A stretch of DNA of 64,000 nucleotides, from positions 2,232,001 to 2,296,000 of the forward strand of contig NZ_CP073754.1 in assembly GCF_018734325.1 (NCBI RefSeq). Reading direction: 5' to 3'. The position numbers and the translations under genes were made by a program. Below, piece by piece: positions 6,393 to 46,652 of the stretch; positions within the stretch are counted from its first letter, which is position 1; every line of letters begins with the position of its first letter. The notes under the pieces were generated by a model. It searched no databases. It was not told the DNA's origin and saw only the letters and a list, made by a program, of their open reading frames with translations. Source of the stretch: Methylomonas paludis. GTDB taxonomy: Bacteria; Pseudomonadota; Gammaproteobacteria; Methylococcales; Methylomonadaceae.

Positions 6393-6587
6393 TGTCTTTA
6401 CCTCTGCTGATATTAGATATTGAATTTTAGGTAACGGAACGATATAGAGAAAGGGTTGCACATCCGTGTGCGATTCAAGCGGAACAAATCCTTATGTCCC
6501 TGAGCTTGAACATTCCAACTTTTAGCTAAACACTATCTTTGCGATAGCTTAGATGATCCGACCATACCGGCCGGAGCGATGCATGTA

Positions 6588-30911: not shown

Positions 30912-30988
30912 GTCCCGGTAGCTCAGCTGGATAGAGCAGCCCCCTCCTAAGGGGCAGGTCGGACGTTCAAATCGTCTCCGGGACGCCA
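30912..30988 (+). tRNA. tRNA-Arg (anticodon CCT)
   Basis: 77 bases. The acceptor GTCCCGG pairs with CCGGGAC. The D-arm is AGCTCAGCTGGATAGAGC, the anticodon arm CCCCTCCTAAGGGG (anticodon CCT), and the T-arm contains GTTCAAATC. A CCA end is encoded. It lies 135 bp before the type I restriction operon. No copy of its 3' end was found at the far side of that operon. Confidence 0.96.
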
Positions 30989-31122: not shown

Positions 31123-32673
31123 ATGACCAGCACCCAACAACGCGCCGCACTGCAACGCCAAATCTGGCAAATCGCCAATGAGGTACGAGGCGCAGTCGAT
31201 GGCTGGGATTTCAAGCAATATGTACTGGGCACCCTATTTTATCGCTTTATCAGTGAAAACTTTGCCGGCTACATCGAAGGCGGTGACGGCAGCATCAACT
31301 ATGCAGAACTTCCCGACAGTGTCATCACCCCGGAAATCAAAGACGATGCCATCAAAACCAAGGGCTACTTCATCTACCCCAGTCAGTTGTTTACAAATGT
31401 TGCTGCGGGCGCCAATACCAACGACAGCTTGAATACGAATTTGGCCACCATCTTTGCCGCCATCGAAAGCTCCGCCAGCAGTTACCCATCAGAGCGTGAT
31501 ATTAAAGGCCTGTTTGCTGATTTTGATACCACCAGCAACCGACTAGGTAACACCGTGACCGACAAAAACAGCCGATTGGCCGCCGTACTCAAAGGTGTGT
31601 CCGGGTTGGATTTTGGCGATTTTGACGGCAGCCACATTGACTTGTTTGGCGATGCCTACGAATTTTTAATCTCCAACTACGCCGCCAATGCCGGTAAATC
31701 CGGTGGCGAGTTTTTTACCCCGCAACACGTGTCCAAGCTGATTGCGCAACTGGCCATGCACCAGCAAACCAGCGTTAATAAAATTTATGACCCCGCCTGT
31801 GGTTCCGGCTCACTGCTGCTGCAAGCCAAAAAGCATTTTGACGCCCACATTATTGACGACGGTTTTTTTGGTCAGGAAATCAATCACACCACCTACAACC
31901 TGGCGCGGATGAACATGTTTTTGCATAACATCAACTACGACAAGTTCAATATTCAGTTGGGCAATACCCTGATCAACCCGCACTTTGGTGATGACAAACC
32001 CTTTGATGCCATTGTCTCCAACCCACCTTACTCGGTAAAATGGATAGGCAGCGATGACCCCACCCTGATTAACGACGAACGCTTTGCCCCGGCTGGCGTA
32101 TTAGCCCCTAAATCTAAAGCCGACTTTGCCTTTGTGCTGCATGCGCTGAGTTACCTCTCCGGCAAAGGTCGCGCCGCTATTGTCTGCTTCCCCGGTATTT
32201 TTTACCGTGGTGGCGCCGAGCAGAAAATCCGCCAATATCTGGTGGATAACAACTATGTCGAGACCATCATCTCACTCGCGCCCAACCTGTTTTTTGGCAC
32301 CACCATCGCCGTGAATATTTTGGTGCTGTCCAAACACAAAACCGACACCAATATCCAGTTTATTGATGCCAGCGGCCTATTTAAAAAGGAAACCAATAAC
32401 AATCTGCTGACTGACCAGCACATCGAACAGATCATGCAGGTGTTCGATAGCAAAACGGATGTTGAACATTTTGCCAAGTCGGTGAATTTTGCTGCCATTG
32501 CCGCCAGCGACTACAACCTGAGTGTGAGCAACTACGTCGAAGCCAAAGACAACCGCGAAGTGGTGGATATTGCTCAGCTCAATGCCGAACTGAAAATTAC
32601 GGTGGCAAAAATCGACCGACTGCGGGCGGAGATTGATGCCATTATGGCGGAGATTAAAGGAGATACTACATGA
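31123..32673 (+). CDS. hsdM: Type IC DNA methyltransferase subunit HsdM
   Basis: 516 residues from [10 protein letters not shown] (AGGAAG upstream; the open frame runs 93 bases further without family signal). SAM-binding motif [13 protein letters not shown] and catalytic NPPY are present, and [20 protein letters not shown] precedes them. The whole protein reads very like EcoR124I HsdM, the type IC archetype. Two HsdM plus HsdS form the adenine methyltransferase that protects host DNA. The stop overlaps the fic start by 4 bp. Confidence 0.97.
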
Positions 32674-33275
32674 TTTTGGAAAATAAACTAAACATCACCC
32701 ATCAAGTTGAGCTTGCCAAGACGGAAGAAAAAATCAGCAAGCAAAAGGCCAGACAGCTGTTTGACTCTGGCGATATTAACCAGGTGGATGTGGGTAAATT
32801 TTCCGGGTTGGCATTTATCCATAGCTATTTGTTTGGGGATATTTATGAGTTTGCCGGCAAACTCCGCGACGTGAATATAGCCAAAGGCAACTTTCGTTTC
32901 GCGCCGCTAATGTATTTAGAGCCATCGTTAAAACATATTGACTCTATGCCACAAGGCAGTTTTGCTGAAATTATCGAAAAATATGTCGAAATGAATATTG
33001 CCCACCCGTTTCGCGAGGGCAATGGTCGTGCCGCCCGCATCTGGCTTGACCTGATGCTGAAAACAGAAATTAAAAAAGTGGTGGACTGGAACTTGGTGGA
33101 CAAGGAGGAATATCTGTCCGCCATGCAACGCAGTGTGGTGAGAGATGTTGAAATTAAAGCCCTGCTCAAACCAGCCTTAACCGATCAAATTGATGACCGC
33201 GCCCTGTTTATGAAGGGTATTGATGTGAGCTATTACTACGAAGGCTATAGTGAATTTAAAACTGAGGAACTGTAG
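32670..33275 (+). CDS. fic: Class III Fic protein (NmFic-like) inside hsd operon
   Basis: 201 residues. The Fic motif [12 protein letters not shown] starts at H112. The C-terminal motif SYYYEG (S187 to G192) fits the (S/T)xxxE(G/N) inhibitory helix of class III Fic enzymes. The segments [40 protein letters not shown] and [12 protein letters not shown] read closely like Neisseria meningitidis NmFic, which AMPylates gyrase subunit B after relief of self-inhibition. Both catalytic and inhibitory parts look intact. It lies between hsdM and hsdS with a 4-bp overlap and a 2-bp gap, so it should be made with them. Confidence 0.93.
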
Positions 33276-33277
33276 TC

Positions 33278-34417
33278 GTGAGTAACTTGCATTATATGGA
33301 AAAACTGCTGGATGGTACTGAGGTGGAGTGGAAACCTTTGGAGCAAGTAGCGAAAATAAAGCATGGCAAAGACTGGAAAGGCTTAGACGCAGGCAATGTT
33401 CCAGTCTACGGTTCGGGCGGTATTATGGGATATGTCGGCGCATATTCATATAACAAGCCATCAGTTCTGATACCTCGAAAAGGCTCGATTACAAATATTT
33501 TCTATATTGAGTCGCCATTCTGGAATGTTGATACAATTTTCTATACAGAAATTGATAGGTCACTAATTATACCGAAGTTTCTTTATTATTTTATTAAAAC
33601 AATTGATCTGATGGCTCTAGATACCGGTTCAGGAAGACCGAGCCTGACACAGGCTATATTGAATAAAATCCCTATCCCTATCCCAAGCCCTGAAAACCCA
33701 GAAAAATCGCTTGAGATTCAAGCCGAAATCGTCCGCATTTTGGACGCATTCACCGAGCTTACCGCCGAGCTTACCGCCGAACTTACCACCGAGATTACCG
33801 CTCGCAAAAAACAATACAACTACTATCGCGACCAATTGTTGAATTTTGAAGAAGGAGACGTGGAGTGGAAGACGTTGGGGGGGATGGCAGAGAATCTTGA
33901 TTCGATGAGAAAACCTATAACGAGTGGCTTAAGAGAATCTGGCTCTATTCCGTACTATGGTGCATCAGGCATTGTCGATTACGTTAAAGGCTATATTTTC
34001 GATGGAGATTTTTTGCTTGTTTCCGAAGACGGCGCAAATTTGGTGGCGCGAAATACCCCAATAGCCTTTAGCATCAGTGGGAAAAGCTGGGTGAACAATC
34101 ACGCACACGTCCTTAAATTCGAGACATACGCTGAGCGTAGATATGTGGAATATTATTTAAATAGCATTAATTTAACGCCTCATATCTCCGGTGCAGCTCA
34201 GCCAAAGCTAAACAAAAAGAATTTAGAAAGCATCAACATTCCGAATCCTTCCCCCGAAGAAAAAGAGCGCATTGTCACCATTTTGGACAAATTCGACGCC
34301 CTTACCAACTCCATCAACGAAGGCTTGCCGCGCGAAATTGAATTGCGCCAAAAGCAATACGAGTACTACCGTAATTTGCTGTTGAGTTCCCCCAAGCCCG
34401 AAGAGGTAGCGGCATAA
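33278..34417 (+). CDS. hsdS: Type IC specificity subunit HsdS
   Basis: 379 residues from GTG at 33278. Two target-recognition domains (about 15-150 and 200-340) are each followed by a conserved helix: [13 protein letters not shown] ... [15 protein letters not shown] in the centre and [20 protein letters not shown] ... [14 protein letters not shown] at the end. The central helix holds TAEL-type four-residue repeats as in EcoR124I. The two domains recognise the two halves of a split site and the helices set the spacing. The recognition sequence cannot be predicted from here. Confidence 0.95.
33749..33796 (+). repeat. 12-bp TAEL-type tandem repeats in hsdS
   Basis: Four 12-base units encode [12 protein letters not shown] and TTEI; the two middle units differ at one base. 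In EcoR124I and its variants, gain or loss of one TAEL unit changes the non-specific spacer of the recognition site by one base pair. The same position and sequence here make unit-number change a plausible switch. Confidence 0.85.
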
Positions 34418-34418
34418 C

Positions 34419-35558
34419 ATGAGCAAGACGCTAACGGAAATAGCACAGCAACTGAGAGACGCCAATAAAAAGGTGCAGATGATCTATGCCTTTAATGGCA
34501 TAGGTAAAACCCGCCTGTCGCGGGAATTTAAGCAGTTGATTGCACCAAAAAACGATGATGGTGAAGGTGATCAATCTGAATTGTCGCGCAATAAAATCCT
34601 TTATTACAACGCTTTTACTGAAGACCTGTTTTATTGGGACAATGATTTAGAGTTGGATGCCGATCCCAAACTGAAAATTCAGCCTAATTCGTATACGGAT
34701 TGGTTGCTCACCCTGCTAAAAGATCTGGGTCAAGATGGAAATATTGTTAAGTATTTTCAGCGTTATGCTAATGACAAATTAACACCCCATTTCAGCGAGG
34801 ATTTTACTGAAGTTGGCTTTTCCCTGGAGCGAGGTGATGATGAACGTTCCGGCTATATCAAAATTTCCAAAGGCGAAGAAAGTAATTTTATCTGGAGTGT
34901 TTTTTATACGCTCCTAGATCAAGTTATTACCATTCTCAATGTTGCCGAACCAGGCGAGCGTGAGACAAATCAGTTTGATCAACTGGAATATGTATTTATT
35001 GATGACCCGGTCAGCTCACTGGATGAAAATCATTTGATTGAGTTGGCGGTCAATTTGGCTGGCTTGATTAAATCCAGTCAATCCGACCTGAAATTTATTG
35101 TCACGACGCATAGTCCGCTGTTTTATAACGTCCTCTTTAATGAGCTTAACGGCAAAACTTGCTATCTGTTAGAGCGCTTTGAAGATGGCACTTTTGCCCT
35201 CGTTGAAAAGCAAGGCGACTCGAACAAGAGCTTTTCTTATCACCTGTATTTAAAGCAAACGCTTGAACAAGCGATTGCCAATAATCAGGTGCAAAAATAT
35301 CACTTCACGCTATTGCGTAACCTGTATGAGAAAACTGCCAGTTTTCTGGGTTACCCGAAATGGTCAGAACTTTTGCCCGATGATAAACAGCTCTATTTAA
35401 ACCGCATTATTCAGTTCACTAGCCATAGCACATTATCCAATGAAGCCGTTGCCGAGCCAACCCCACAAGAGAAGCAAATGGTTAAGCTGCTGCTGGAGAA
35501 CTTGATTGATAACTATGGTTTTTGGCAGCAGCTAGAGCAAAATGACAATCGAAACTAA
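34419..35558 (+). CDS. prrC: PrrC-type tRNA anticodon nuclease
   Basis: 379 residues. The N-terminal ATPase part has Walker A AFNGIGKT (24-31), the [16 protein letters not shown] signature region (151-166) and [12 protein letters not shown] (191-202). The C-terminal nuclease triad is conserved: R300, E304 and H336, the same spacing (+4, +36) as R320/E324/H356 of E. coli PrrC. The N-terminus is about 20 residues shorter than E. coli PrrC. PrrC is held silent by its type IC restriction complex and cuts the tRNA-Lys anticodon loop when phage blocks restriction. It follows hsdS by 1 bp and overlaps the next gene, matching the prr locus order. Confidence 0.95.
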
Positions 35559-36558
35559 ACCAGCTCTACATAGCCAACAAGACTTTGTCGATGTATTACG
35601 ACATATTCAACAATCGCGTCAGAAGATTTTTGCGCAAATTAACACGACCCTCATCGATTTATACTGGCAAATTGGTCAAATCATTAGCCATAAAGTCAGT
35701 ACAGAAGCGTGGGGTAAAGGCGTTGTGACTGATTTGGCGGTATTTATCACGCAGCAAAACCCTGAACTAAAAGGCTTTAGCGATAAAAACCTGTGGCGCA
35801 TGAAGCAGTTTTTTGAAACCTATCAGGCAGATGAAAAACTCTCATCACTGGTGAGAGAATTGCCTTGGACCCACAACACGATTATTTTTTCACGCTGTAA
35901 GTCTGCTGAGGAGCGTGAATATTATTTGAATGTATGCATCAAAGAACGATATACATCAAGGGAGCTTGAGCGTCAGATTAATACCTCTCATTTTGAACGC
36001 GCCATGCCGGGCAATCAGAAACTCTCAGCAGTGCTGAGAGAATTGCATCCAAACATTAGCAATACATTGAAAGATAACCATGTATTGGAGTTTTTAGGCT
36101 TGCCTATGCAACACAAGGAAAGCCATTTACAAAAAGCCTTAATTCGGAATATGAAAAAATTTATTCTAGAATTGGGCAGAGACTTTATTTTTGTAGGCGA
36201 AGAATATCGTTTACAAGTAGGCAATCAAGATTTTTTTATTGACTTACTGTTTTTTCATCGTGGCTTGGCGGCATTGGTGGCATTTGAGTTAAAAATTGGC
36301 AAATTTAGTCCTGAGCATTTAGGGCAGCTTAATTTTTACCTTGAAGCACTAGACCGCGATGTGAAAAAACCGCATGAAAATCCAAGCATAGGTATTTTGC
36401 TATGCCGAGATAAAGATGAAGAGGTAGTGGAATACGCACTATCACGCAACTTATCACCGACGATGGTGGCTCAATATGAATTACAGTTGCCAGATAAAAA
36501 ACTAATTCAGGCTAAATTGCATGAATTATCTGAAATTGGATATTTTGAATCAAACTAA
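35542..36558 (+). CDS. YhcG/DUF1016 PD-(D/E)xK nuclease
   Basis: 338 residues. The N-terminal DUF1016 part reads [20 protein letters not shown] and [19 protein letters not shown]. The C-terminal nuclease core has [20 protein letters not shown] and [20 protein letters not shown], giving the D...ExK active-site pattern. Such proteins often sit next to type I restriction genes, but their role is not settled; DNA-end processing or defence has been suggested. It overlaps prrC by 17 bp and hsdR by 1 bp, so it is part of the same operon. Confidence 0.9.
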
Positions 36559-39500
36559 TGAAAGAATATAAAGTCATTGCAGAATCCAACAACTTTATCG
36601 TTCTGGATAAATATACCAAGGAATGGAAAGTTAGCGAAAGCTACCAAAGCGAATACGACTTGGAGCGGGAATTTATACGTGATCTGCAAAATCAAGGTTA
36701 TGAATACCTGCCCGATCTCAACACTCTAAAAAAGATGTTGGCCAACGTACGCGAGCAGTTGCAAGCCCTGAATAACATGCGGTTTTCCGACGGCGAATGG
36801 CTGCGTTTTGTGGAGACCTGGCTGGACAGGCCCAGCGATAGCATCATTGATAAAACCCGTAAGATTCATGATGACTATATTCATGATTTTGTGTTTGATG
36901 ATGGCCATATTCAGAACATCTACCTGTTGGACAAAAAGAACATTGCCCGCAATAAGGTGCAAGTTATCAAGCAGTTTGAGCAAAAGGGTTCGCACGCCAA
37001 CCGCTACGATGTCACGGTGCTGGTCAATGGCTTGCCTTTGGTGCAGGTTGAACTGAAAAAACGTGGTGTGGCCATTCGCGAGGCCTTTAATCAGGTGCAC
37101 CGTTACAGCAAAGAGAGTTTTAATAGCGGGCATTCGTTGTTTAAATATTTGCAGCTGTTCGTCATTTCAAACGGTACGGATAGCCGTTATTTTGCCAACA
37201 CCACTCAGCGCAACAAAAACAGCTTCGATTTCACCATGAACTGGGCAAAATCCGATAATGGCCCGATTAAAGACTTAAAATATTTTACCGCCACTTTCTT
37301 TCAGAAAAACACCTTGCTCAGTGTGCTGCTGCATTATTCGGTGTTTGATGTGAGTGATACTTTGCTGGTGATGCGCCCCTATCAAATTGCCGCCACCGAG
37401 CGCATCTTGTGGAAAATCAAAAGCACCTATCAAGCTGAAAACTGGAGCAACGTGGAAAGCGGCGGCTTTATCTGGCACACCACCGGCTCTGGTAAAACCC
37501 TGACCAGTTTTAAAGCGGCGCGTTTGGCGACTGAGCTGGATTTTATTGACAAGGTGTTTTTCGTGGTGGATCGGAAAGATCTGGATTACCAGACCATGAA
37601 GGAATATCAGCGCTTTTCGCCGGATAGTGTCAATGGCTCGGACAGCACTGCCGGGCTTAAACGCAATCTGGATAAAGATGACAATAAAATTATTATCACC
37701 ACGATCCAAAAGCTCAACAACCTGATGAAAGGTGAAAACGACTTGCCGATTTATAACAAGCAAGTGGTGTTTATTTTTGATGAGGCGCACCGTAGCCAGT
37801 TTGGTGAGGCGCAGAAAAACCTGAAGAAAAAGTTTAAAAAGTTTTATCAATTTGGTTTTACCGGCACACCGATATTCCCGCAAAATGCCCTTGGTGCCGA
37901 TACCACCGTCAGCGTGTTTGGCCGCGAGTTGCATGCTTATGTCATCACCGACGCTATTCGCGATGAAAAGGTATTGAAGTTTAAAGTGGACTACAACGAT
38001 GTGCGCCCAAAGTTTAAAGCCTTTGAAAGGGAGCAAGACGAGAAAAAACTTAACGCGGCAGAAAACAAGCAAGCCTTGTTGCACCCCGAGCGTATTCGGG
38101 AAATTTCGCAATATATCTTGAATAATTTCCGGCAAAAAACCCATCGCCTGCAGGCTGGGGCCAAAGGCTTTAATGCCATGTTTGCCGTGAGCAGTGTGGA
38201 TGCCGCCAAGCTGTATTATGAGTCTTTGCATAAATTACAAGAAGGCAGTGAGAAGCCATTGAAAGTGGCGACCATATTCTCTTTTGCAGCTAATGAAGAA
38301 CAGGATGCCGTAGGCGAGATTCAGGATGAAAGCTTTGATGTTTCTGCCATGAACAGCAGTGCCAAAGAGTTTTTAAGCGCGGCTATTGCTGACTATAACA
38401 CGCTGTTTAAAACCAATTTTAGTGTGGATAGCAATGGCTTTCAAAATTATTACCGCGATCTTGCCAGGCAGGTAAAAGCCAAGGAAATTGACTTGCTGAT
38501 TGTGGTTGGCATGTTTTTAACCGGCTTTGATGCTCCAACCTTGAATACCTTGTTTGTGGATAAAAACTTGCGTTACCACGGTTTGATGCAGGCCTATTCA
38601 CGCACCAATCGCATATTTGATGCCACCAAAACCTTTGGTAATATCGTTACCTTCCGTGATTTAGAGCAAGCCACCATTAATGCTATTACCCTGTTTGGCA
38701 ATAACAATACCAAAAACGTGGTGCTGGAGAAGAGCTATAAGGAATACATGGCAGGCTTTACGGATGTAGTGACCGGCGAAACCCGACGCGGCTTTGTGGA
38801 GGTAGTCACGGAGCTGGAACAGCGTTTCCCCAACCCCGATGAGATTGTTAAAGAATCCGACAAAAAAGCCTTCGTGAAACTGTTTGGGGAATATTTGCGC
38901 GTGGAAAATGTGCTGCAAAACTACGATGAATTTGCCAGCCTGAAAGCCCTGCAAAGTGTTGATATTAGTGACCAGGAAGCGGTTGAGGCATTCAAAGCCC
39001 AACATTATCTAAGCGATGAAGACCTGGCCGCACTGCAAGTCATCAAAATGCCCGCCGAGCGGAAAATTCAGGATTATCGCTCCACCTATAACGACATACG
39101 CGACTGGCTACGGCGTGAAAAATCCGCCGCTGAAAAAGAAAAATCCACCATTGATTGGGATGAGGTGGTGTTTGAGGTGGATCTGCTCAAGTCCCAAGAA
39201 ATCAATTTGGATTATATTCTGGAACTGATTTTTGAAAATAATAAGAAAGTTAAAGATAAAGCGGCGCTGGTTGAAGATGTGCGCCGAGTGATTCGCTCTA
39301 GCCTGGGCAACCGCGCCAAAGAGAGCTTGCTGGTTGATTTTATTAATCAAACCGATCTAGATCAGATAGGCGATAAGGCCAGTGTTATTGATGCTTTCTT
39401 TATCTTTGCACAAGCGGAACAACAGCGTGAGGCGCAAGAGCTAATTAGCACTGAAAGCCTGAATGCTGAGGCCGCGAGGCGTTATATTAGCACCTCACTA

Positions 39501-39656
39501 AAACGGGAGTTTGCCAGTGATAATGGCACTGAGCTGAATGCTATTCTGCCTAAAATGAGCCCGTTAAACCCACAGTACCTGACAAAAAAGCAGAGTGTCT
39601 TCCAAAAAATAGCCGCTTTTGTGGAGAAGTTTAAAGGTGTCGGTGGACAGGTGTGA
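36558..39656 (+). CDS. hsdR: Type IC restriction subunit HsdR
   Basis: 1032 residues (EcoR124I HsdR has 1038). The nuclease site D151...E165-x-K167 ([20 protein letters not shown]) and the ATPase Lys K313 in TTGSGKT have the same numbering as in EcoR124[14 protein letters not shown] is the helicase motif II. HsdR translocates DNA and cuts it far from the recognition site. It closes the operon, and no frameshift was seen. Confidence 0.97.
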
Positions 39657-39778: not shown

Positions 39779-39979
39779 ATGGATTCAATTAATAACCATA
39801 CTTTCAAGTCTGCTTTGATCGATAAGGATCAGGTATTAATTGACCCCTTAAATTGGGATGCATTGTTCGATAAAGTCAGTGAGCGATCAAAACAAGGACA
39901 AACGCCATCAATTGATGATCAAACATCAGGCGAGCCCACTTTGACCCGCGATGAAATTTATGCCGACCGTTTGCATTGA
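39779..39979 (+). CDS. Putative antitoxin before broken PIN toxin
   Basis: 66 residues from MDSINNHTF (an in-frame ATG 18 bases earlier is possible). The sequence DQVLIDPLNWDALFDKVSER and the acidic-basic tail PTLTRDEIYADRLH look like short antitoxins that precede PIN toxins. Its end overlaps the ATG at 39960 of a PIN-type reading frame. With that toxin broken it may be an orphan. Confidence 0.5.
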   Translation: MDSINNHTFKSALIDKDQVLIDPLNWDALFDKVSERSKQGQTPSIDDQTSGEPTLTRDEIYADRLH

Positions 39980-40205
39980 CACCAATATTTTGGTGTATAA
40001 ATTTGAACGATCCAATACTGCAAACAAAAAAGCGCGAACTATAACGTCTATCAAATCTGCCAGGCAACTATGGGCCATTCAAGTCCAAACCGCCCCCAGC
40101 TCTACGTCATTCAAAGCCATATGTCGGATACCGTACCGACTGATACGGGTTTTATTACTAGAATTCTCAAAATGCCTTAGTGCTGACTCAAAGCTTGGTT
40201 TTTGA
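39960..40205 (+). pseudogene. Truncated PIN toxin
   Basis: The frame starts MPTVCIDTNILVYKFERSNT, the classic first acidic motif of a VapC/PIN ribonuclease. After about 30 residues the family pattern is lost and the frame ends near 40205 without the later acidic residues. A deletion or frameshift after residue 30 is likely. Confidence 0.55.
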
Positions 40206-40455: not shown

Positions 40456-40839
40456 ATGAACCAGCCCCTTTCAGAAAATACCCAGCCAACGGATGCTGTA
40501 AGTCTAACCGATACGCAGCGCTTTTGGTTTGCCCATGTCGAGCAATGCCTGGCGTCAGGTTTGAGTATTGCCGTGTATGCCCGGCAACACCAATTGGCCG
40601 ATAAATCTTTATATCACTGGATCAAGCGTAAGCGTGAGTGGCCAAGCCGTGCTGTGCAGACCGGCGCTGGCACAGCGACTTTTCATCCTGTGCAGATGGT
40701 ACAGCCGGTGACGAGTGGCTCACTTGAACGGCCAACGCTGTGGCTGCGCCTACCCAATGGCATTGAATGTCAATTTCAAGCCATTGATACCGAGCATTGC
40801 CTGGCGGTGCTGACCGGGTTGTCGAGGTTGCCAGCATGA
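40456..40839 (+). CDS. tnpA: IS66-family accessory protein TnpA
   Basis: 127 residues. TDTQRFWFAHVEQCLASGLS, then IAVYARQHQLADKSLYHWIK, is the helix-turn-helix region of IS66 TnpA, a small protein needed with TnpB for transposition. Its stop overlaps the tnpB start (ATGA). Confidence 0.9.
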   Translation: MNQPLSENTQPTDAVSLTDTQRFWFAHVEQCLASGLSIAVYARQHQLADKSLYHWIKRKREWPSRAVQTGAGTATFHPVQMVQPVTSGSLERPTLWLRLPNGIECQFQAIDTEHCLAVLTGLSRLPA

Positions 40840-41195
40840 TGCGGCCCCTTTCCGTCGATTGGGCAGTTTATTTATGCGAACAACCGGTTGATTTCAGGAA
40901 GGGCGCTGCCAGTTTGGCGGTCCTGGTGGAAGCGCAGTTGAGTTTAAATCCGTTTGCTGATTGTTTGTATGTGTTTAGAAATCGGTCAGCCACGGCTATC
41001 AAGTTGCTGTATTGGGAGCGTAATGGTTTTTGTCTATGGCAGAAGCGTTTGGAGAAAGCACGGTTTTTCTGGCCAAAACCCAGCGAGTCTGGCACGGTGA
41101 CGTTAAGCGTACAGCAACTGAACTGGTTGTTGGAAGGTTATGATATTAATCGCATGAAGCCGCATCCGGTGCTGGATTATCAGTCGGTTTTATAA
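40836..41195 (+). CDS. tnpB: IS66-family accessory protein TnpB
   Basis: 119 residues. The blocks VYLCEQPVDFRKGAASLAVL, NPFADCLYVFRNRSATAIKL then LYWERNGFCLW, and QLNWLLEGYDI define the IS66 Orf2 family. This protein is unrelated to the RNA-guided TnpB of IS605. Translation is coupled to tnpA. Confidence 0.95.
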   Translation: MMRPLSVDWAVYLCEQPVDFRKGAASLAVLVEAQLSLNPFADCLYVFRNRSATAIKLLYWERNGFCLWQKRLEKARFFWPKPSESGTVTLSVQQLNWLLEGYDINRMKPHPVLDYQSVL

Positions 41196-41237
41196 TCTTT
41201 TGCCGGCTTTGAAGCGTCTATTTTCTGAATTTTCAAT

Positions 41238-41270
41238 GGCTTATTATGGCGTAAGTTGCTATAATAAGCC
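41238..41270 (+). promoter_or_regulatory. Hairpin just before tnpC start
   Basis: A perfect 10-bp stem GGCTTATTAT / ATAATAAGCC (41238-41247 with 41261-41270) ends two bases before the tnpC ATG. It would limit ribosome access to the transposase start. No separate ribosome binding site is seen. Confidence 0.5.
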
Positions 41271-41272
41271 TT

Positions 41273-42886
41273 ATGGAACAAGAGCTTGAATTGCCTTCAG
41301 ATGTCGACAGCCTGCAGAAAATGCTACGTACGCTGACGCGTGATTATCGGCAATTACAATCAAAACACGATATTCTGCAAGAGCAAATCAATCTCTTGCT
41401 ACATAAACGCTTTGGCGCCAATAGCGAGAAATACCGGGCAGAGCAAGCGGATATGTTCAATGAGGCGGAAGCCTATGCCGAAGAGTCGGATGAAACGACC
41501 GCTGAAACGGCGACGGCCACCTCTGAAGTGGTGGCCGCCACCGAAAATGCATCAGCGCCTATCGCTTCCGCAGCCCAGCCCGGCCAAACTGTACCGGTCA
41601 AGCCTGGCCGTAAAGCCCTGCCTGCTGCACTCCCCCGCGTTGAGATCATCCACGACCTACCGGAAGCGCAACGCCGTTGCTCAGCCGGCCATGCGCTAAA
41701 AGAAATCGGTACTGAAGTGTCCGAACAACTGGACATCATTCCAGCCAAGGTGCAGGTGTTACGCCATATCCGCATCAAGTATGCCTGCCCTTGCTGTCAG
41801 GCCGAGGTGAAAACCGCGCCACTGCCGCCGCAACCGCTGCCTAAAAGCAATGCTTCGCCCGGTTTACTGGCTTATCTGATCACCAGCAAATTCCTGGATG
41901 CCTTGCCGTTTTACCGGCAAAGTAAACAGTTTCAGCGTATCGGCGTTGAGCTATCACGCGGCACCCTGTCTTTATGGGCGATTCGTTGCGGCGAGCTGAT
42001 TCAAGCTTTGTGCAATTTGATGCAGGAACACCTGCATCAGTACCCCATTCTGCAAATGGATGAAACCACGCTACAAGTCTTGAAAGAAGAGGGCAAAGCC
42101 GCTAGCAGTCAGTCTTATCTGTGGGTACAGCGCGGTGGCCCACCTGATCAACCAGTCGTGCTGTTTCACTATGCACCCACCCGCAGCCAGGCCGTGGCAG
42201 ACCAACTGCTACAAGGTTACAGCGGTACGCTGCAAACCGACGGCTACGCCGCTTACCCGACCGTGTGCGCTAAAAACGGCTTGCGCCATGCCGGGTGTTG
42301 GGCACACGCCAGACGTAAATTCGATGAAGCCTTAAAAGCCCAAGGCAAAGCTCAGCCTAAAGCCGGCAAAGTCAGTAAGGCCTTAATCATGATCCAGAAA
42401 CTGTACCGGATTGAGACGCAAATCAAATATCTGTCGGTCGATGAAAAATACCGGATTCGCCAACAGCAGGCCGTGCCGATCCTGCATGAAATCAAAGCTT
42501 GGTTGGATATCTCCTTAACCCAAGTGGCCCCCACCAGCTTAACCGGCAAAGCCTTGGGCTATCTGGCTAACCAGTGGTCAACACTCACCGTCTATTGCCA
42601 AGATGGGCGGTTAGACATTGATAACAATGCCGTGGAACGCGCCATCCGGCCCTTTGTCATTGGTCGTAATAACTGGCTATTCGCCGATACCATAAAAGGC
42701 GCCAAAGCCAGTGCCAATCTCTATAGCCTGATTGAAACCGCCAAACTCAATGGACTGGAGCCGTATCGCTATCTGCATCATATTTTTAAAGAACTGCCCA
42801 AGGCTCAGACTCTGGAAGATATTGAATCACTGCTGCCCTGGCAAGTGGATAGGGAGCATATTAACAGCGGATGGAAAAATGGCTAG
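41273..42886 (+). CDS. tnpC: IS66-family transposase TnpC
   Basis: 537 residues. A coiled N-terminus (LRTLTRDYRQLQSKHDILQE) and KRFGANSEKYRAEQADMFNE lead to a Zn-finger-like CPCC (YACPCCQAEVKT). The DDE catalytic core follows: PILQMDETTLQVL, TLQTDGYAAYPTV, CWAHARRKFDEAL and DIDNNAVERAIRPFVIGRNN. The gene is intact. Confidence 0.96.
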   Translation: MEQELELPSDVDSLQKMLRTLTRDYRQLQSKHDILQEQINLLLHKRFGANSEKYRAEQADMFNEAEAYAEESDETTAETATATSEVVAATENASAPIASAAQPGQTVPVKPGRKALPAALPRVEIIHDLPEAQRRCSAGHALKEIGTEVSEQLDIIPAKVQVLRHIRIKYACPCCQAEVKTAPLPPQPLPKSNASPGLLAYLITSKFLDALPFYRQSKQFQRIGVELSRGTLSLWAIRCGELIQALCNLMQEHLHQYPILQMDETTLQVLKEEGKAASSQSYLWVQRGGPPDQPVVLFHYAPTRSQAVADQLLQGYSGTLQTDGYAAYPTVCAKNGLRHAGCWAHARRKFDEALKAQGKAQPKAGKVSKALIMIQKLYRIETQIKYLSVDEKYRIRQQQAVPILHEIKAWLDISLTQVAPTSLTGKALGYLANQWSTLTVYCQDGRLDIDNNAVERAIRPFVIGRNNWLFADTIKGAKASANLYSLIETAKLNGLEPYRYLHHIFKELPKAQTLEDIESLLPWQVDREHINSGWKNG

Positions 42887-42908
42887 ATGGGGTTTGATAA
42901 CCGCTTAC

Positions 42909-43178
42909 GGTAAACATGTTGAGGCGGAACATTTTCGACTGATGATGAGCTGTGCCGAAATTTGCCAAGCCTCGGCTAATTTGCAACTGGGTGGCTCTGT
43001 TTTTCATCAGCGTGTTTGCGGGGTTTGTGCCGAAATCTGCGAAGCCTGTGCGGTGAGTTGCGAAAAAATTGGCGGTATGGATGAATGCGTGAAGGCGTGC
43101 CTAGCTTGCGCCGAGAGTTGTCGGCACATGGCAAGTAACACGCTTGGGCATCATGACGGCTGCGAGAATAAAGCCTGA
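42909..43178 (+). pseudogene. Copper-storage protein gene, 3' fragment
   Basis: Begins with the second GGTAAACA. In frame with the 5' fragment it encodes HVEAEHFRLMMSCAEICQAS and ends in Cys-rich helices CGVCAEICEACAVSC and CVKACLACAESC. CxxxC and CxxC spacing along helices is the Cu(I)-binding core of Csp proteins. It has no start of its own near the IS. The intact ancestor would have stored many copper ions in the cytosol; the split copy is presumably inactive. Confidence 0.88.
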
Positions 43179-43265
43179 GAAAAATCTGCCGATTTCAAAA
43201 AGAGGGGATTTATTAAATTCCTAAATAACTCTACCCTTGGGCAAAATAGTAAATGGAGCGCAACC

Positions 43266-43505
43266 ATGAAAAATAAGGATAAAGCATCTCATTACGCACA
43301 TGAGGCTTTTGATAAAATTGCCGGTGCAAGCAGTAAGGCATCCGAGGTACTTTACGATAAAGGCGAGGACTTGAAAATTGCCGAGCAAATATTGAGAAAG
43401 CAATGCCGCAGATATGTGCGTGATAATCCGATTACAGCATTGGGTATTGCAGCAACAGCAGGCTTTTTGTTGAGCCAGCTACTTAAAAGTACGTTAAACC
43501 GTTAA
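43266..43505 (+). CDS. DUF883/ElaB-YqjD-like membrane protein
   Basis: 79 residues with an amphipathic Lys/Asp/Ala-rich N-terminus and a C-terminal membrane segment (ITALGIAATAGFLLSQLL). RRYVRDNPITALGIA is the signature of the DUF883 group; E. coli relatives bind stationary-phase ribosomes at the membrane. GGAG lies upstream. It sits between two broken metal-storage genes. Confidence 0.8.
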   Translation: MKNKDKASHYAHEAFDKIAGASSKASEVLYDKGEDLKIAEQILRKQCRRYVRDNPITALGIAATAGFLLSQLLKSTLNR

Positions 43506-43654
43506 AAATCATGTATTCGGGTGCGCTGGTAGCCCCATGCAGTTGGTGTACTTAGTTTTATTGCTATAGAGCAAGGTTACAGGCATCGCTGCATGAAAGT
43601 GCCGACCCCCTTGCTGGGGGGGGGTTCTCCGTCCCCAGCGAATCGGCTTTTGGT

Positions 43655-44047
43655 CTATAGGTCATCTATGAGCGAAGCAAGATCTTCGGCATGTTCTTCT
43701 TCACTGGCCAGTATCTCTTTGAGCATGATTTGTGTTGTTGAATCATGCTCAGCCAAATAGGCTATCATCTCCCGATAGCTTTCGATGGCGATCCTTTCAG
43801 CTATAAGATCTTCCTTGATCATCGATTTGAGCGTATCGCCTTCAATGTACTCGGCGTGGCTACGCTCGCTCAACCCATCTGGAGAATAATTGGGTTCGCC
43901 CCCCAATTCGACAATGCGTTTTGCCAGACGGTCCGCATGCAGCATCTCTTCATTGGCGTGGGCCAAAAACTCGGTTTTTACCGGCTCGGAATGTATTCCC
44001 TTGGCCATAAAGAAATGACGTTTATAACGTAGAACGCAGACTAACTC
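43655..44047 (-). pseudogene. Ferritin-like gene, 3' fragment
   Basis: Encodes ELVCVLRYKRHFFMAKGIHS, ANEEMLHADRLAKRIVELGG, ERIAIESYREMI and ASEEEHAEDLASLIDDL, the helices and Glu/His ligands of a bacterioferritin/DPS-like protein. The 5' part lies at 47472-47647 beyond a 3.4-kb insertion. Joining through one copy of ACTAACTC restores a single frame (ATELVCVLRY). The fragment has only a TTG of IS origin as possible start, so it is probably not functional. Confidence 0.88.
44040..44047. repeat. Target-site duplication, left copy (ACTAACTC)
   Basis: ACTAACTC occurs immediately left of the insertion and again at 47472-47479 on its right. Confidence 0.95.
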
Positions 44048-44129
44048 GTAAGCGCTCAATTATCCGCGTAATTCACAACCCTTATGGGCCCTGTCAGACT
44101 ATCCCCACGCTATAAACTTGGGATTTACG

Positions 44130-44459
44130 ATGGCATCAACCGAAAGCAATACCGATCACGAATTCTGGCAACGCCATATCGAGCAATGGCACACCTCCGG
44201 GTTATCTCAAGCCAGTTACTGCCGCCAGCAAGCGCTACTTGTCCATCGATTTAGTTATTGGAAGCGCAAGTTCCTGGCAGAGTGCGAACCGATTTCGCCT
44301 GATCCAAAAAGCGGCTTTGCCCGAGTGCAAGTAGCGGCACCTGTCGCCACACCTTCCTCGCCGGGCTTGTCCTTGTGCTTTCGGGATGGCATCCGGTTGA
44401 CCGGGATTACGCAGACTAATCTGGCTTTGATTAAACCCTTGCTTGAGGTATTGCGGTGA
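44130..44459 (+). CDS. tnpA: IS66-family TnpA (left copy)
   Basis: 109 residues from MASTESNTDHEFWQRHIEQW. The SQASYCRQQALLVHRFSYWK helix-turn-helix pattern is as in IS66 TnpA. It is identical to the copy at 47060-47389 and overlaps tnpB by 4 bp (GTGA). Confidence 0.88.
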   Translation: MASTESNTDHEFWQRHIEQWHTSGLSQASYCRQQALLVHRFSYWKRKFLAECEPISPDPKSGFARVQVAAPVATPSSPGLSLCFRDGIRLTGITQTNLALIKPLLEVLR

Positions 44460-44821
44460 CTTATATCATGCGCCCCGCCTTGGAACTGACAGAGGTCTAT
44501 CTTTACCGGCAAGCCATTGATTTTCGCAAATCCCATCGTGGCCTGGCGGCGATTATTGAGTGTGAGCTCGGCCATAATCCGTTTGATGGTGGGCTGTATG
44601 CGTTCACCAATCAGCAGCGAACTAAAATCAAATGTTTGTTCTGGGAAAACACGGGCTTTGTCCTTTATTACAAGGCTTTGGTCGAGGATAAGTTCAAGTG
44701 GCCGAAGGGTGATGAGGCACTGTTAACGTTAACCGGTCAGCAGTTGAATTGGCTTTTGGATGGCTATGACATTAGCGTCATGAAAGGCCATAAAAACCGG
44801 CATTATGAATCTGTTTTTTAA
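44456..44821 (+). CDS. tnpB: IS66-family TnpB (left copy)
   Basis: 121 residues from GTG overlapping the tnpA stop (ATG at 44468 is the alternative). VYLYRQAIDFRKSHRGLAAI, KIKCLFWENTGFVLYYKAL and LNWLLDGYDISVMKGH are typical. Identical to the copy at 46698-47063. Confidence 0.92.
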   Translation: MTYIMRPALELTEVYLYRQAIDFRKSHRGLAAIIECELGHNPFDGGLYAFTNQQRTKIKCLFWENTGFVLYYKALVEDKFKWPKGDEALLTLTGQQLNWLLDGYDISVMKGHKNRHYESVF

Positions 44822-44843
44822 GGGAAATATCAGTATTTACGGA

Positions 44844-44876
44844 GTGAAATCGCGTATAATATCAGCATGATTTCAC
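44844..44876 (+). promoter_or_regulatory. Inverted repeat covering tnpC start codon
   Basis: GTGAAATC (44844-44851) can pair with GATTTCAC (44869-44876), placing the tnpC ATG (44867) at the stem base. The same sequence is present in the complete - strand copy. It parallels the start-codon hairpin of the other IS66-family element here. Confidence 0.45.
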
Positions 44877-44971
44877 CTCACTTTCCTGCCTTAGAACACG
44901 ATGATTACTCGGCTGTCTTGTTGCCGGGGATGCTCGCTGAATTACTTGAAAAAGCACAACGCGTGGAGTAA
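44867..44971 (+). pseudogene. Truncated tnpC (left copy)
   Basis: Only 34 residues (MISPHFPALEHDDYSAVLLP onward) remain before the junction. The stop TAA is supplied by the terminal repeat of the opposing copy. The catalytic core is missing. Confidence 0.9.
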
Positions 44972-44996
44972 GCGCTTAATAAAGCACGTAGTACCC

Positions 44997-46652
44997 CTAT
45001 CTGGCAAAATTCTGATTTTTAAAATTCCAGGGCAACAAGGCTTCAATTTTTTCAACCGTATCGGCATAAGGCAGTGCTTTGAGGACTTGGGTTAAATAGG
45101 CGTAGGGTTCTATTCCATTAGCTTTAGCCGTTTCAATCAAACTGTAATGGATTGCGCTGGCTTGTGCGCCTTTGGGGCTATCACTGAATAACCATGCTTT
45201 GCGACCAATCACAAAGGGACGAATAGCGTTTTCAGCAAGAATATTGCTGATGTTCAATTCCCCATTCGAGCAATACACCATCAGCTTATCCCATTGATTA
45301 CTGAGGTAAGTCATGGCCTTGCCGGTTAAACCGTCCTTCGGCACTTTGTGTTGATTGTCATCCAGGTACGTTTTCAGTTTTTTCAAAACAGGCAGGCTTC
45401 TTTTGCAGCGTTGCTGAAATTTTTCTGCGGCGCTCAGTGTTTTGATCTGCCGCTCTATCATATAGAGTGTATTGATTAAACCCAGGATGTGATCCGCTTT
45501 GCTCGCCTTATACGGTTTACCTTTCTTCGGTTTGGGTTGCGCATCTTGAGCCTCTTTAAATTTGCGGCGCACATGATCCCAACAACCTAGTTGGGTAATG
45601 TTGTTAATAAGGCACGCGGCATTGTAGCCAGCAAAGCCATCGGTTTGCAGATAACCCTGAAAACCATCAAGCAGGCGCAACGGCACGTCCTGGCTGCGGG
45701 ACGGATCGTATTCAAACAACACGCTAGGTTGTCCAGGCGGACCGCCCAGTGTCACCCACATGAATTTATCCGAGGTCGCCGGTCGCCCCGGTTCTTTGAG
45801 GACCTGCACCCGTGTTTCGTCGGCCATGATGAGGTTGCCGGCCTGTTGATGATCCCGGAGGAGATTAATCAAAGGTTGCAAGGGTCTGGCCAGCGCGATG
45901 ACCCAGTTGGCTAGCGTGGCCCTTGAGAGTTCGCCGCCATAACGGGCTAAGATGTTTTCAAGTCGATAAAGCGGTAAGCCATCGCAGTATTTATAGATGA
46001 GTACAGAGCACATCAGGTCAATGCTACCCATTGCACCCGGAACAGGATGCTTGGGCAGAACGGCAGCTATAATCCGGCGTTGCATCTCATCTTGACTCGG
46101 TTCCAGAAACACGGCTTTTTCTTGCATGTATTCTAAAACCCGTACTTGTGCGGGGATAATGTCCAGTTCTTCTTTGACTTTAGTAAAGAAGGTCGTAATG
46201 GCACCGGCTTTTTCTTCATCGCTCAGCTTGATAAAGATTTGCTCGCGGGGTAAGTTGTCGGCAAACGGTTTACGTCCCGGTTTTTGCTTAGTTTGACCGG
46301 CCTCAGGGGATTCGGACGCAATGCCGGACGCAATCGCCTCGACTTCGTCGACCGCTTCATCCGTTGCGGTTTCAAAATCCACCGTGGCTTCAATTTCAGC
46401 ATCATCAAATAACGAGATTTGCCCCGACTGTTCACTCGAAGGTGCAAAGCGTTTGACTTTGGATAACCGTAGCGCTTCTTCGAGTAACTCAATCCGTTGT
46501 TTGAGCGAGGCAATGACTTCGGATTTAAGTTCAACGGTTTGCGTTAACTCATCCACGCGTTGTGCTTTTTCAAGTAATTCAGCGAGCATCCCCGGCAACA
46601 AGACAGCCGAGTAATCATCGTGTTCTAAGGCAGGAAAGTGAGGTGAAATCAT
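44997..46652 (-). CDS. tnpC: IS66-family transposase TnpC
   Basis: 551 residues. Leucine-rich coiled N-terminus (ELTQTVELKSEVIASLKQRI), KRFAPSSEQSGQISLFDDAE, then the catalytic core: NLIMADETRVQVL, YLQTDGFAGYNAAC, CWDHVRRKFKEAQ and NILAENAIRPFVIGRKAWLF. It is intact and is the only full transposase of this element here. Confidence 0.95.
   Translation of the reverse strand: MISPHFPALEHDDYSAVLLPGMLAELLEKAQRVDELTQTVELKSEVIASLKQRIELLEEALRLSKVKRFAPSSEQSGQISLFDDAEIEATVDFETATDEAVDEVEAIASGIASESPEAGQTKQKPGRKPFADNLPREQIFIKLSDEEKAGAITTFFTKVKEELDIIPAQVRVLEYMQEKAVFLEPSQDEMQRRIIAAVLPKHPVPGAMGSIDLMCSVLIYKYCDGLPLYRLENILARYGGELSRATLANWVIALARPLQPLINLLRDHQQAGNLIMADETRVQVLKEPGRPATSDKFMWVTLGGPPGQPSVLFEYDPSRSQDVPLRLLDGFQGYLQTDGFAGYNAACLINNITQLGCWDHVRRKFKEAQDAQPKPKKGKPYKASKADHILGLINTLYMIERQIKTLSAAEKFQQRCKRSLPVLKKLKTYLDDNQHKVPKDGLTGKAMTYLSNQWDKLMVYCSNGELNISNILAENAIRPFVIGRKAWLFSDSPKGAQASAIHYSLIETAKANGIEPYAYLTQVLKALPYADTVEKIEALLPWNFKNQNFAR

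What the first reader, a model, noticed from the sequence alone, without database searches (positions are those of the whole stretch)
31123..39656. Layered defence operon: type IC restriction with embedded Fic, PrrC and YhcG
Six genes with overlaps or 1-2 bp gaps run hsdM-fic-hsdS-prrC-yhcG-hsdR. The E. coli prr locus has hsdM-hsdS-prrC-hsdR; here a class III Fic AMPylase and a PD-(D/E)xK nuclease are added inside the same unit. All active-site motifs I could check look intact. If restriction is inhibited by a phage, PrrC would cleave tRNA. Fic might add a second arrest (gyrase AMPylation in NmFic). The combined logic as one system is the most interesting candidate in the window.
Basis: partly seen in the sequence, partly recalled or inferred. 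Interest (0 to 1): 0.85.

Follow-up and report, generated by a model that had tools for sequence, protein, structure and literature searches.

The report
Restriction operon carrying swappable toxin genes
A bacterium related to methane eaters has a common DNA-cutting antiviral operon with three extra genes (two probable growth-stopping enzymes and a probable nuclease) packed into two gaps where its relatives keep other extras, so it looks like one load on an exchangeable carrier rather than one fixed new machine.

Summary
The six genes are there, intact and tightly packed: hsdM, fic, hsdS, prrC, yhcG, hsdR (31123-39656; genus inferred as Methylomonas). The backbone is type IC-like restriction-modification. 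PrrC keeps its ATPase motifs and R-x3-E-x31-H triad, Fic is the self-inhibited NmFic/EfFic type, YhcG is a DUF1016 PD-(D/E)xK protein. The components are right; a single "combined logic" is not supported. Related backbones in 9 of 36 same-genus genomes carry other loads (RhuM, Schlafen/AlbA, KilA-N, RelA/SpoT-like, DUF559). The same order was seen in one other locus (L043, plus a truncated gene), the same three extras in another order in L031, and the three together in none of 16 HsdR-anchored loci. The extras are not chance: fic recurs between hsdM and hsdS as far as Fusobacteria, YhcG occurs as four subfamilies, each in one slot, and all three are under purifying selection. yhcG moved recently as a one-gene cassette (dS 0.21, against 1.84 and 1.55 for its neighbours in the same locus pair). 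Best reading: a two-slot cargo operon with independent back-up effectors, a loaded variant of the E. coli prr locus. Activities are inferred, not shown.

The parts
31123..32673 (+). hsdM, type I adenine methyltransferase subunit, 516 aa
   Evidence: TIGR00497 650 bits, PF02384 1.5e-120; motifs I and IV intact
32670..33275 (+). fic, class III (self-inhibited) AMP-transferase, 201 aa; occupies the hsdM/hsdS slot
   Evidence: NF046029 303 bits; residues 2-201 align with E. faecalis Fic 5nv5, E=1.3e-92; FIC motif at 112 and C-terminal SYYYEG at 187
33278..34417 (+). hsdS, specificity subunit, 379 aa, GTG start
   Evidence: PF01420, two stretches, 3.8e-49; PADLOC Specificity_I 3e-118
34419..35558 (+). 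prrC, anticodon-nuclease family protein, 379 aa; first gene of the hsdS/hsdR slot
   Evidence: PADLOC PrrC 3.2e-152; R300, E304, H336 and G29-K30-T31 invariant in 16 aligned PrrC
35542..36558 (+). yhcG, DUF1016 PD-(D/E)xK protein, 338 aa; second gene of the hsdS/hsdR slot, recently exchanged cassette
   Evidence: PF06250 4.3e-56, PF17761 3.3e-43; 89-98% identity at about 35520-36540 against L068, mostly 67-84% through prrC and 72% at the start of hsdR
36558..39656 (+). hsdR, type I restriction subunit, 1032 aa
   Evidence: TIGR00348 677 bits, PF12008 EcoR124_C 1.5e-70; nuclease and helicase motifs intact
30912..30988 (+). tRNA-Arg (CCT) directly upstream of hsdM; not part of the operon, a possible integration site
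   Evidence: ARAGORN; copies of its 3' part lie about 5-15 kb away in five same-genus genomes

Best explanation
A type IC-like restriction-modification operon that serves as a carrier with two cargo slots, one at the hsdM/hsdS junction and one at the hsdS/hsdR junction. This copy carries Fic in the first slot and PrrC plus YhcG in the second. Likely working: HsdMS methylates host DNA and HsdRMS cuts unmodified incoming DNA (from homology). PrrC is held latent by the Hsd complex and cuts tRNA-Lys when a phage blocks restriction (inferred from E. coli EcoprrI). Fic is a self-inhibited AMP-transferase that, when released, modifies GyrB Tyr109 and stops replication (inferred from NmFic; the target residue is present in this genome). 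YhcG is probably a nuclease of the PD-(D/E)xK fold that acts on DNA (weak fold evidence), perhaps on ends left by HsdR or as a separate suicide nuclease. The three extras are independent back-ups gained and lost separately, mostly by recombination in the flanking hsd genes. Shown: genes, motifs, recurrence, exchange of yhcG, slot clustering, purifying selection. Inferred: all activities, triggers, the back-up role and the recombination route.
For: Related backbone in 9 of 36 same-genus genomes; six of these can be laid out from hsdM to hsdR and none has the window's set, three are partial. Of 71 PrrC-anchored loci with hsdM, hsdS and prrC in one run, 47 have no extra that my models recognise, 5 have Fic, 7 YhcG, 11 RhuM, 6 another. 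Of 16 HsdR-anchored loci that span hsdM to hsdR, 9 have PrrC, 8 RhuM, 4 YhcG, 1 Fic, none Fic+PrrC+YhcG. yhcG against L068: dS 0.21, with prrC 1.84 and hsdR 1.55 in the same pair; the identity block coincides with the yhcG frame in L068 and L043. YhcG tree of 18: slot label needs 2 changes, shuffled mean 5.8, 0 of 500 as low; RhuM (23 labelled of 26) 4 against about 7.7, 1 of 500. Distances of Fic against PrrC (r 0.28, 6 loci) and YhcG against PrrC (0.38, 8 loci) give no clear common history. Junction spacings recur across loci. dN/dS 0.04-0.15 for fic, prrC and yhcG against intact homologues. GyrB of this genome has Tyr109.
Against: No experiment. Fic tracks the backbone (r 0.77 with HsdM in 11 loci, 0.88 with HsdR in 9), so it may be a more permanent partner than 'exchangeable' suggests; PrrC also tracks it (0.60, 80 loci). 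In the same set YhcG has 0.56 with HsdM (11 loci, 1 of 2000 shuffles as high) and 0.43 with HsdR (9 loci, 53 of 2000), so it is not wholly uncoupled. Fic and YhcG co-occur in 2 of 71 PrrC loci, somewhat more than expected (Fisher p=0.07), which leaves room for cooperation. dS near 2 is saturated, and one Fic pair (L049) gave no dS. Several comparison loci, L043 and L068 among them, are from metagenome bins. The mobility of Fic and PrrC themselves was not shown as it was for yhcG.
Confidence: 0.7

Rival explanations
1. One integrated layered system: restriction, PrrC, Fic and YhcG share a trigger and act in a set order.
For: Tight overlapping junctions; the same six genes in the same order in L043, with a truncated DUF1016 gene between fic and hsdS, and the same three extras in another order in L031; Fic and YhcG weakly associated (p=0.07).
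Against: 0 of 16 HsdR-anchored loci have the set; L031 uses a different YhcG subfamily in the other slot; yhcG was exchanged without prrC or hsdR; same-genus relatives carry other extras.
Confidence: 0.12
2. The extras are selfish or addictive genes that use the R-M operon as a carrier (or stabilise it) and give little phage defence.
For: Remnants of cargo beside the backbone, for example rhuM, yhcG and hsdR fragments in L142 and truncated RhuM pieces in L144 and L150; yhcG exchanged more recently than its neighbours.
Against: PrrC is a known back-up defence in E. coli (passages); cargo under purifying selection; class III Fic carries its own inhibitory glutamate (passage) and relatives stand alone (L158, L159, L161), so post-segregational killing is not obvious.
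Confidence: 0.15
3. Chance insertion of unrelated genes into an operon, with no function there.
For: The full set is rare; yhcG has the lowest G+C of the operon (0.387 against 0.495 for hsdM).
Against: Four YhcG subfamilies (28-53% identical to each other) and Fic recur at these junctions; slot labels cluster on the trees; reading frames intact and conserved.
Confidence: 0.03

Closest known systems
E. coli prr locus (EcoprrI, type IC hsdM-hsdS-prrC-hsdR)
   Same: Backbone family, gene order and PrrC between hsdS and hsdR; this plain order is the commonest among the 82 PrrC loci laid out (42 of 82).
   Different: Adds Fic between hsdM and hsdS and YhcG between prrC and hsdR.
NmFic / EfFic, class III Fic proteins
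   Same: Equivalog model over cut-off, near full-length match, FIC motif and C-terminal inhibitory (S/T)xxxE(G/N) motif.
   Different: Encoded inside an hsd operon; close relatives also occur without labelled hsd genes in the stretches fetched (L158, L159, L161, L021).
PADLOC candidates PDC-S02 (DUF1016/YhcG), PDC-S04 (Fic), PDC-S05 (RhuM), PDC-S22 (KilA-N)
   Same: Fic and YhcG here, and RhuM and KilA-N in the relatives, match these candidate models strongly.
   Different: The models are of single genes; here several sit together in defined slots of one operon. The Schlafen/AlbA, DUF559 and RelA/SpoT-like cargo match PADLOC only weakly.
Extra genes in Campylobacter jejuni type I loci (rlo, mlo), and the toxin-replacement idea of Makarova et al. 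2012
   Same: Varied extra genes inside type I loci (RloC paper passage; mloB listed between hsdS and hsdM, passage); repeated replacement of toxins in R-M loci (passage).
   Different: The 2012 text holds neither 'Fic' nor 'DUF1016' and the RloC text not 'Fic' (DUF1016 not looked for); here exchange of one cassette and slot clustering are shown on sequence.

Membership tests
Type IC restriction-modification (EcoR124/EcoprrI) | HsdM, HsdS and HsdR subunits of the type I family in order M-S-R | tested here: met
   PF12008 EcoR124_C domain in HsdR
Type IC restriction-modification (EcoR124/EcoprrI) | Subunit complementation or antibody cross-reaction with other IC enzymes (criterion recalled), and restriction activity | not testable with these tools
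   Needs bench work
PrrC anticodon nuclease | ABC-type ATPase motifs plus Arg-x3-Glu-x31-His catalytic triad | tested here: met
   the model resembles Rad50 and PtuA heads (low TM-scores, mean pLDDT 77)
PrrC anticodon nuclease | Location inside an hsd operon between hsdS and hsdR | tested here: met
PrrC anticodon nuclease | Cleaves tRNA-Lys, silenced by its R-M enzyme, activated by an anti-restriction factor | not testable with these tools
   Inferred from E. coli; passages
Class III Fic AMP-transferase (NmFic/EfFic) | FIC motif HPFx(D/E)GNGRxxR and C-terminal inhibitory helix with (S/T)xxxE(G/N) | tested here: met
   in a 13-row alignment H112, S187, E191 and G192 are invariant while motif position 116 varies
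Class III Fic AMP-transferase (NmFic/EfFic) | AMPylates GyrB | not testable with these tools
   The genome's GyrB has Tyr109; activity unknown
YhcG/DUF1016 nuclease | DUF1016_N plus YhcG_C PD-(D/E)xK domains with D and ExK | tested here: met
   D234 and K251 invariant in 18 rows, E249 not
YhcG/DUF1016 nuclease | Nuclease activity | not testable with these tools
   Foldseek hits to AdnA, MGME1 and SSO0001, TM-scores low, model pTM 0.44
A single conserved six-gene defence system | Same gene set conserved as a unit across unrelated genomes | tested here: not met
   same order in L043 only, of 82; 0 of 16; varied cargo in same-genus relatives

The most novel reading that the evidence does not exclude
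Type IC hsd operons are a general two-slot docking platform: the hsdM/hsdS and hsdS/hsdR junctions each accept particular subfamilies of effector (Fic, two YhcG subfamilies and mostly one set of RhuM in the first; PrrC, two other YhcG subfamilies and mostly another set of RhuM in the second) because those proteins are kept silent by, and sense, the neighbouring Hsd subunit. Each cargo would then be a different alarm for a different way of disabling restriction, and the window holds one of the fuller loads.
Probability: 0.25. Interest if true: 0.75.

Novelty: new variant of a known kind. Interest (0 to 1): 0.45.

Why it matters
PrrC is the well-studied case of a toxin guarded by a restriction enzyme. 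If Fic, YhcG and RhuM are guarded in the same operon in the same way, type I loci become a large, readable collection of restriction-guarding effectors, and the slot pattern says which Hsd subunit to test as the silencer of each. If they are not guarded, the locus is a clean natural record of cassette exchange in a defence operon. Either way the question whether PrrC-style guarding is general becomes testable with one small operon.

Tried and rejected
Island bounded by a tRNA: the operon follows tRNA-Arg(CCT), but no second close copy of the tRNA was reported in the window's genome (three matches, two of them 75-77% elsewhere) and none of 11 related loci scanned holds a tRNA; left as a side observation. 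E. coli search for this fic in distant mode: no match. Viral contigs: all 22 contigs with a PrrC of at least 47% identity (L201-L222, of 40 found) have HsdR downstream, 21 directly, and none shows Fic or a full-length YhcG in the stretch fetched, several of which begin near prrC; the Fic and YhcG hits there (L241-L246) have no labelled hsd gene. PrrC and YhcG by sequence in the PDB: no hit. An all-backbone distance test gave YhcG no correlation with HsdM or HsdR, but in the close-backbone set it is moderate, so that argument was dropped and the case rests on dS and the identity block. The 101-aa ORF of L143 matches no family and, at E below 0.1, only its own duplicate. Of four YhcG pairs with intact genes dN/dS is at most 0.15; the fifth, the L142 remnant, gave 0.34 and is not counted. 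HsdS was given no selection test because it is only 36-66% identical to its relatives.

Rows dropped or counted loosely: duplicate loci of one genome (for example L044 = L143, L064 = L166); L040 and L098 of the 80 PrrC hits, whose prrC my labelling missed; seven of the remaining 78 without hsdM, hsdS and prrC in one run. The 47 loci with 'no recognised extra' include some whose extra my models do not know: L034 and L082 (Bro-N), L085 (ORF6N) and L056 (RelA/SpoT). Layouts break at genes on the other strand and stop at the last hsd or prrC gene, which hid hsdR of L031 and the second yhcG of L027 until. Of 21 HsdR hits above 1100 bits other than the window were fetched (G413 and G332, broken or at a contig end, left out); 3 of the 19 were incomplete (L165, L170, L179); among the 16 counted, L163, L171 and L180 have a partial end gene and L169 a broken hsdS. 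The two surveys share some genomes.

Literature: PrrC+Fic+type I restriction+hsdM gave 0 papers; DUF1016+type I restriction+Fic gave 1, not opened; RhuM+type I restriction+hsdS gave 1, not opened; Fic family protein+hsdM+hsdS+hsdR gave 1, passages read, no link of its Fic gene to the hsd operon stated there; type I restriction-modification+embedded+accessory genes and so on gave 1, passages read. So I found no paper on this combination in that library, which lacks most subscription journals. All papers were seen as passages only. Miller et al. 2005 was not read; it is known here only through the RloC paper.
Full report
WHAT IS THERE. The window lies at 2232001-2296000 of a 3.67-Mb single-contig genome. 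Six + strand genes run hsdM, fic, hsdS, prrC, yhcG, hsdR with junctions of -4, +2, +1, -17 and -1 bp. All are full length with intact motifs. Whether they are transcribed together was not tested; pattern scans show no promoters above chance, and only two weak terminator-like sites on this strand inside the operon.

THE COMPONENTS. HsdR carries the EcoR124_C domain. PrrC has R300, E304 and H336 at the spacing of E. coli PrrC (Arg320-Glu324-His356, passage), invariant in 16 aligned PrrC proteins; an AlphaFold model from those 16 sequences (mean pLDDT 77) resembles Rad50 and PtuA ATPase heads, with low TM-scores. Fic passes the NCBI model for NmFic and aligns from residue 2 to its end with E. faecalis Fic, including the C-terminal inhibitory motif. 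Literature passages describe such class III proteins as self-inhibited, NmFic as a modifier of gyrase, and EfFic as both adding and removing AMP. The window genome's GyrB has tyrosine at 109. YhcG has D234 and K251 invariant in 18 sequences, E249 not; its model (mean pLDDT 74, pTM 0.44) gives weak matches to AdnA, MGME1 and SSO0001, the last a Cas4-type protein by recall.

RELATED BACKBONES, DIFFERENT LOADS. Searching 61 genomes with the operon DNA gave strong hsd matches (about 80% identity or more) in 9 of 36 same-genus genomes. Gene orders: G576 hsdM-fic-hsdS-[Schlafen/AlbA]-remnants-rhuM-hsdR; G585 hsdM-fic-hsdS-prrC-rhuM-hsdR (with a 101-aa ORF after hsdM that matches nothing); G573 hsdM-hsdS-[DUF559]-rhuM fragment-yhcG-hsdR; G583 hsdM-hsdS-[Schlafen/AlbA]-hsdR (hsdM cut by the contig end); G561 hsdM-rhuM-fic-[KilA-N]-hsdS-[RelA/SpoT-like]-hsdR; G590 hsdM-rhuM-fic-hsdS-[RelA/SpoT-like]-hsdR (hsdR cut). 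G567 (short contigs: hsdM end-rhuM fragment-fic-yhcG-hsdS, and hsdR apart), G586 and G587 are partial. HsdM and HsdR are 87-93% identical in protein to the window's in these loci, apart from one 19% fragment in L150 at 75%. G561 carries four extras, so the window's load is not the largest.

WIDER SURVEY. A scan of species genomes with a PrrC alignment kept 80 loci, the best of at least 514, so this set is chosen for likeness to PrrC. With four plasmid loci added, 82 could be laid out; 42 are plain hsdM-hsdS-prrC-hsdR. Among 71 of the 80 with hsdM, hsdS and prrC in one run, 47 have no extra that my eleven models recognise, 5 have Fic, 7 YhcG, 11 RhuM and 6 others, a few of them outside the hsdM-hsdR interval; at least four loci carry extras unknown to the models. 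The window's order recurs in L043, a Methylococcales bin, with one additional truncated DUF1016 gene between fic and hsdS. L031 (Advenella) has hsdM-fic-yhcG-hsdS-prrC-hsdR. To avoid choosing by PrrC, I took the strongest HsdR hits in samples of 369 genomes of the class and 398 of the phylum and fetched 19 of 21; 16 span hsdM to hsdR, three of them with a partial end gene and one with a broken hsdS: PrrC in 9, RhuM in 8, YhcG in 4, Fic in 1, six with nothing recognised besides PrrC, none with Fic, PrrC and YhcG together. Fic between hsdM and hsdS also occurs in Cetobacterium (Fusobacteriota).

CASSETTE EXCHANGE. Against L068, window nucleotide identity is mostly 67-84% through prrC, 89-98% from about 35520 to 36540, which is the yhcG reading frame, and 72% at the start of hsdR; L043 shows the same shape, 79-97% in the block. 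Synonymous distances for the L068 pair are 0.21 for yhcG, 1.84 for prrC and 1.55 for hsdR (values near 2 are saturated). yhcG is also 72-75% identical to genes sitting between hsdR and hsdS of a different type I family whose HsdR is 30-35% identical. It therefore moves without its neighbours. In G576 the junction holds a fossil: the first 148 bp of rhuM, then an inner piece of yhcG (94% identical to the window's), then the first 110 bp of hsdR, then intact rhuM and hsdR.

NOT CHANCE. YhcG proteins in these operons fall into four subfamilies, 28-53% identical to each other. On an 18-row tree (three rows from the other type I family) the slot label needs 2 changes, against 5.8 in shuffles, and none of 500 shuffles is as low; each subfamily keeps to one slot. 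RhuM needs 4 changes against about 7.7, 1 of 500 as low, with single exceptions inside its clades (near-copies help such clustering, and the YhcG tree has long inner branches). L027 carries one YhcG subfamily in the first slot and another in the second, though its contig ends before hsdR. dN/dS is 0.04-0.15 for fic, prrC and yhcG against intact homologues. Fic distances track HsdM (r 0.77, 11 loci) and HsdR (0.88, 9 loci), and PrrC tracks HsdM (0.60, 80 loci); YhcG gives 0.56 with HsdM (11 loci) and 0.43 with HsdR (9 loci), RhuM about 0.3 (20 and 19 loci); Fic against PrrC 0.28 (6 loci), YhcG against PrrC 0.38 (8 loci). So Fic and PrrC look like longer-term residents, while YhcG and RhuM change more often.

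HOW IT MOST LIKELY WORKS. Restriction by HsdRMS is the first layer. PrrC, by analogy with EcoprrI, is silenced by the Hsd proteins and stops translation when restriction is inhibited (passages). Fic needs no antitoxin gene and would stop replication through GyrB when its self-inhibition is lifted. YhcG is probably a DNA nuclease. I think these are separate back-ups riding in the same operon rather than one ordered circuit, because the loads differ from locus to locus and yhcG was exchanged alone. The bolder reading, that each is guarded by the Hsd subunit beside it, is not excluded and would explain slot fidelity; recombination through flanking hsd genes would explain it too.

KNOWN AND NEW. 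The hsdM-hsdS-prrC-hsdR locus, extra genes in type I loci and their replacement by one another are in print (passages), and PADLOC already holds models of Fic, DUF1016, RhuM and KilA-N as defence candidates. I found no description of Fic and DUF1016 together with PrrC in a type I operon (open-licence library only). The new content is this particular load, the demonstration of single-gene cassette exchange, and the slot clustering of two cargo families. I rate it a new variant of a known kind.

Noticed in passing
window 30912-30988 and G566, G571, G561, G562, G559: In five same-genus genomes the 3' part of tRNA-Arg(CCT) is repeated about 5-15 kb from the full tRNA, as at an integration hotspot; no such second copy was listed for the window's genome.
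   Followed up: partly
L142:9521-11405: Fossil record of cargo turnover: start of rhuM fused to an inner piece of yhcG, then the start of hsdR, then intact rhuM and hsdR.
   Followed up: yes
L027:2609-3649 and 5964-7040: One operon with two different YhcG subfamilies, one after hsdM and one after prrC.
   Followed up: yes
L146:8331-8912, L147:2560-3141, L061, L056:7784-8446: A RelA/SpoT-like protein as cargo, in the hsdS/hsdR slot or (L056) the hsdM/hsdS slot (L147 and L061 by my own model only); a possible alarmone-making effector.
   Followed up: partly
L020, L152, L153, L154, L229: Another type I family with yhcG between hsdR and hsdS (or, L229, between prrC and hsdM): the same kinds of cargo on a distant backbone.
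   Followed up: partly
L201-L222: prrC followed by hsdR on 22 IMG/VR contigs, without Fic or full-length YhcG in the stretches fetched.
   Followed up: partly
window 40456-46652: Two sets of IS66-like transposase genes (my reading of the translations, not searched) around a ferritin-like gene, downstream of hsdR.
   Followed up: no
window 39951-40205: Short frame that starts like a PIN-domain toxin (by eye); no Pfam match, probably a remnant.
   Followed up: no
window 9660-19850: A 3396-aa filamentous-haemagglutinin-like protein with TPS secretion and DUF3739 domains.
   Followed up: no
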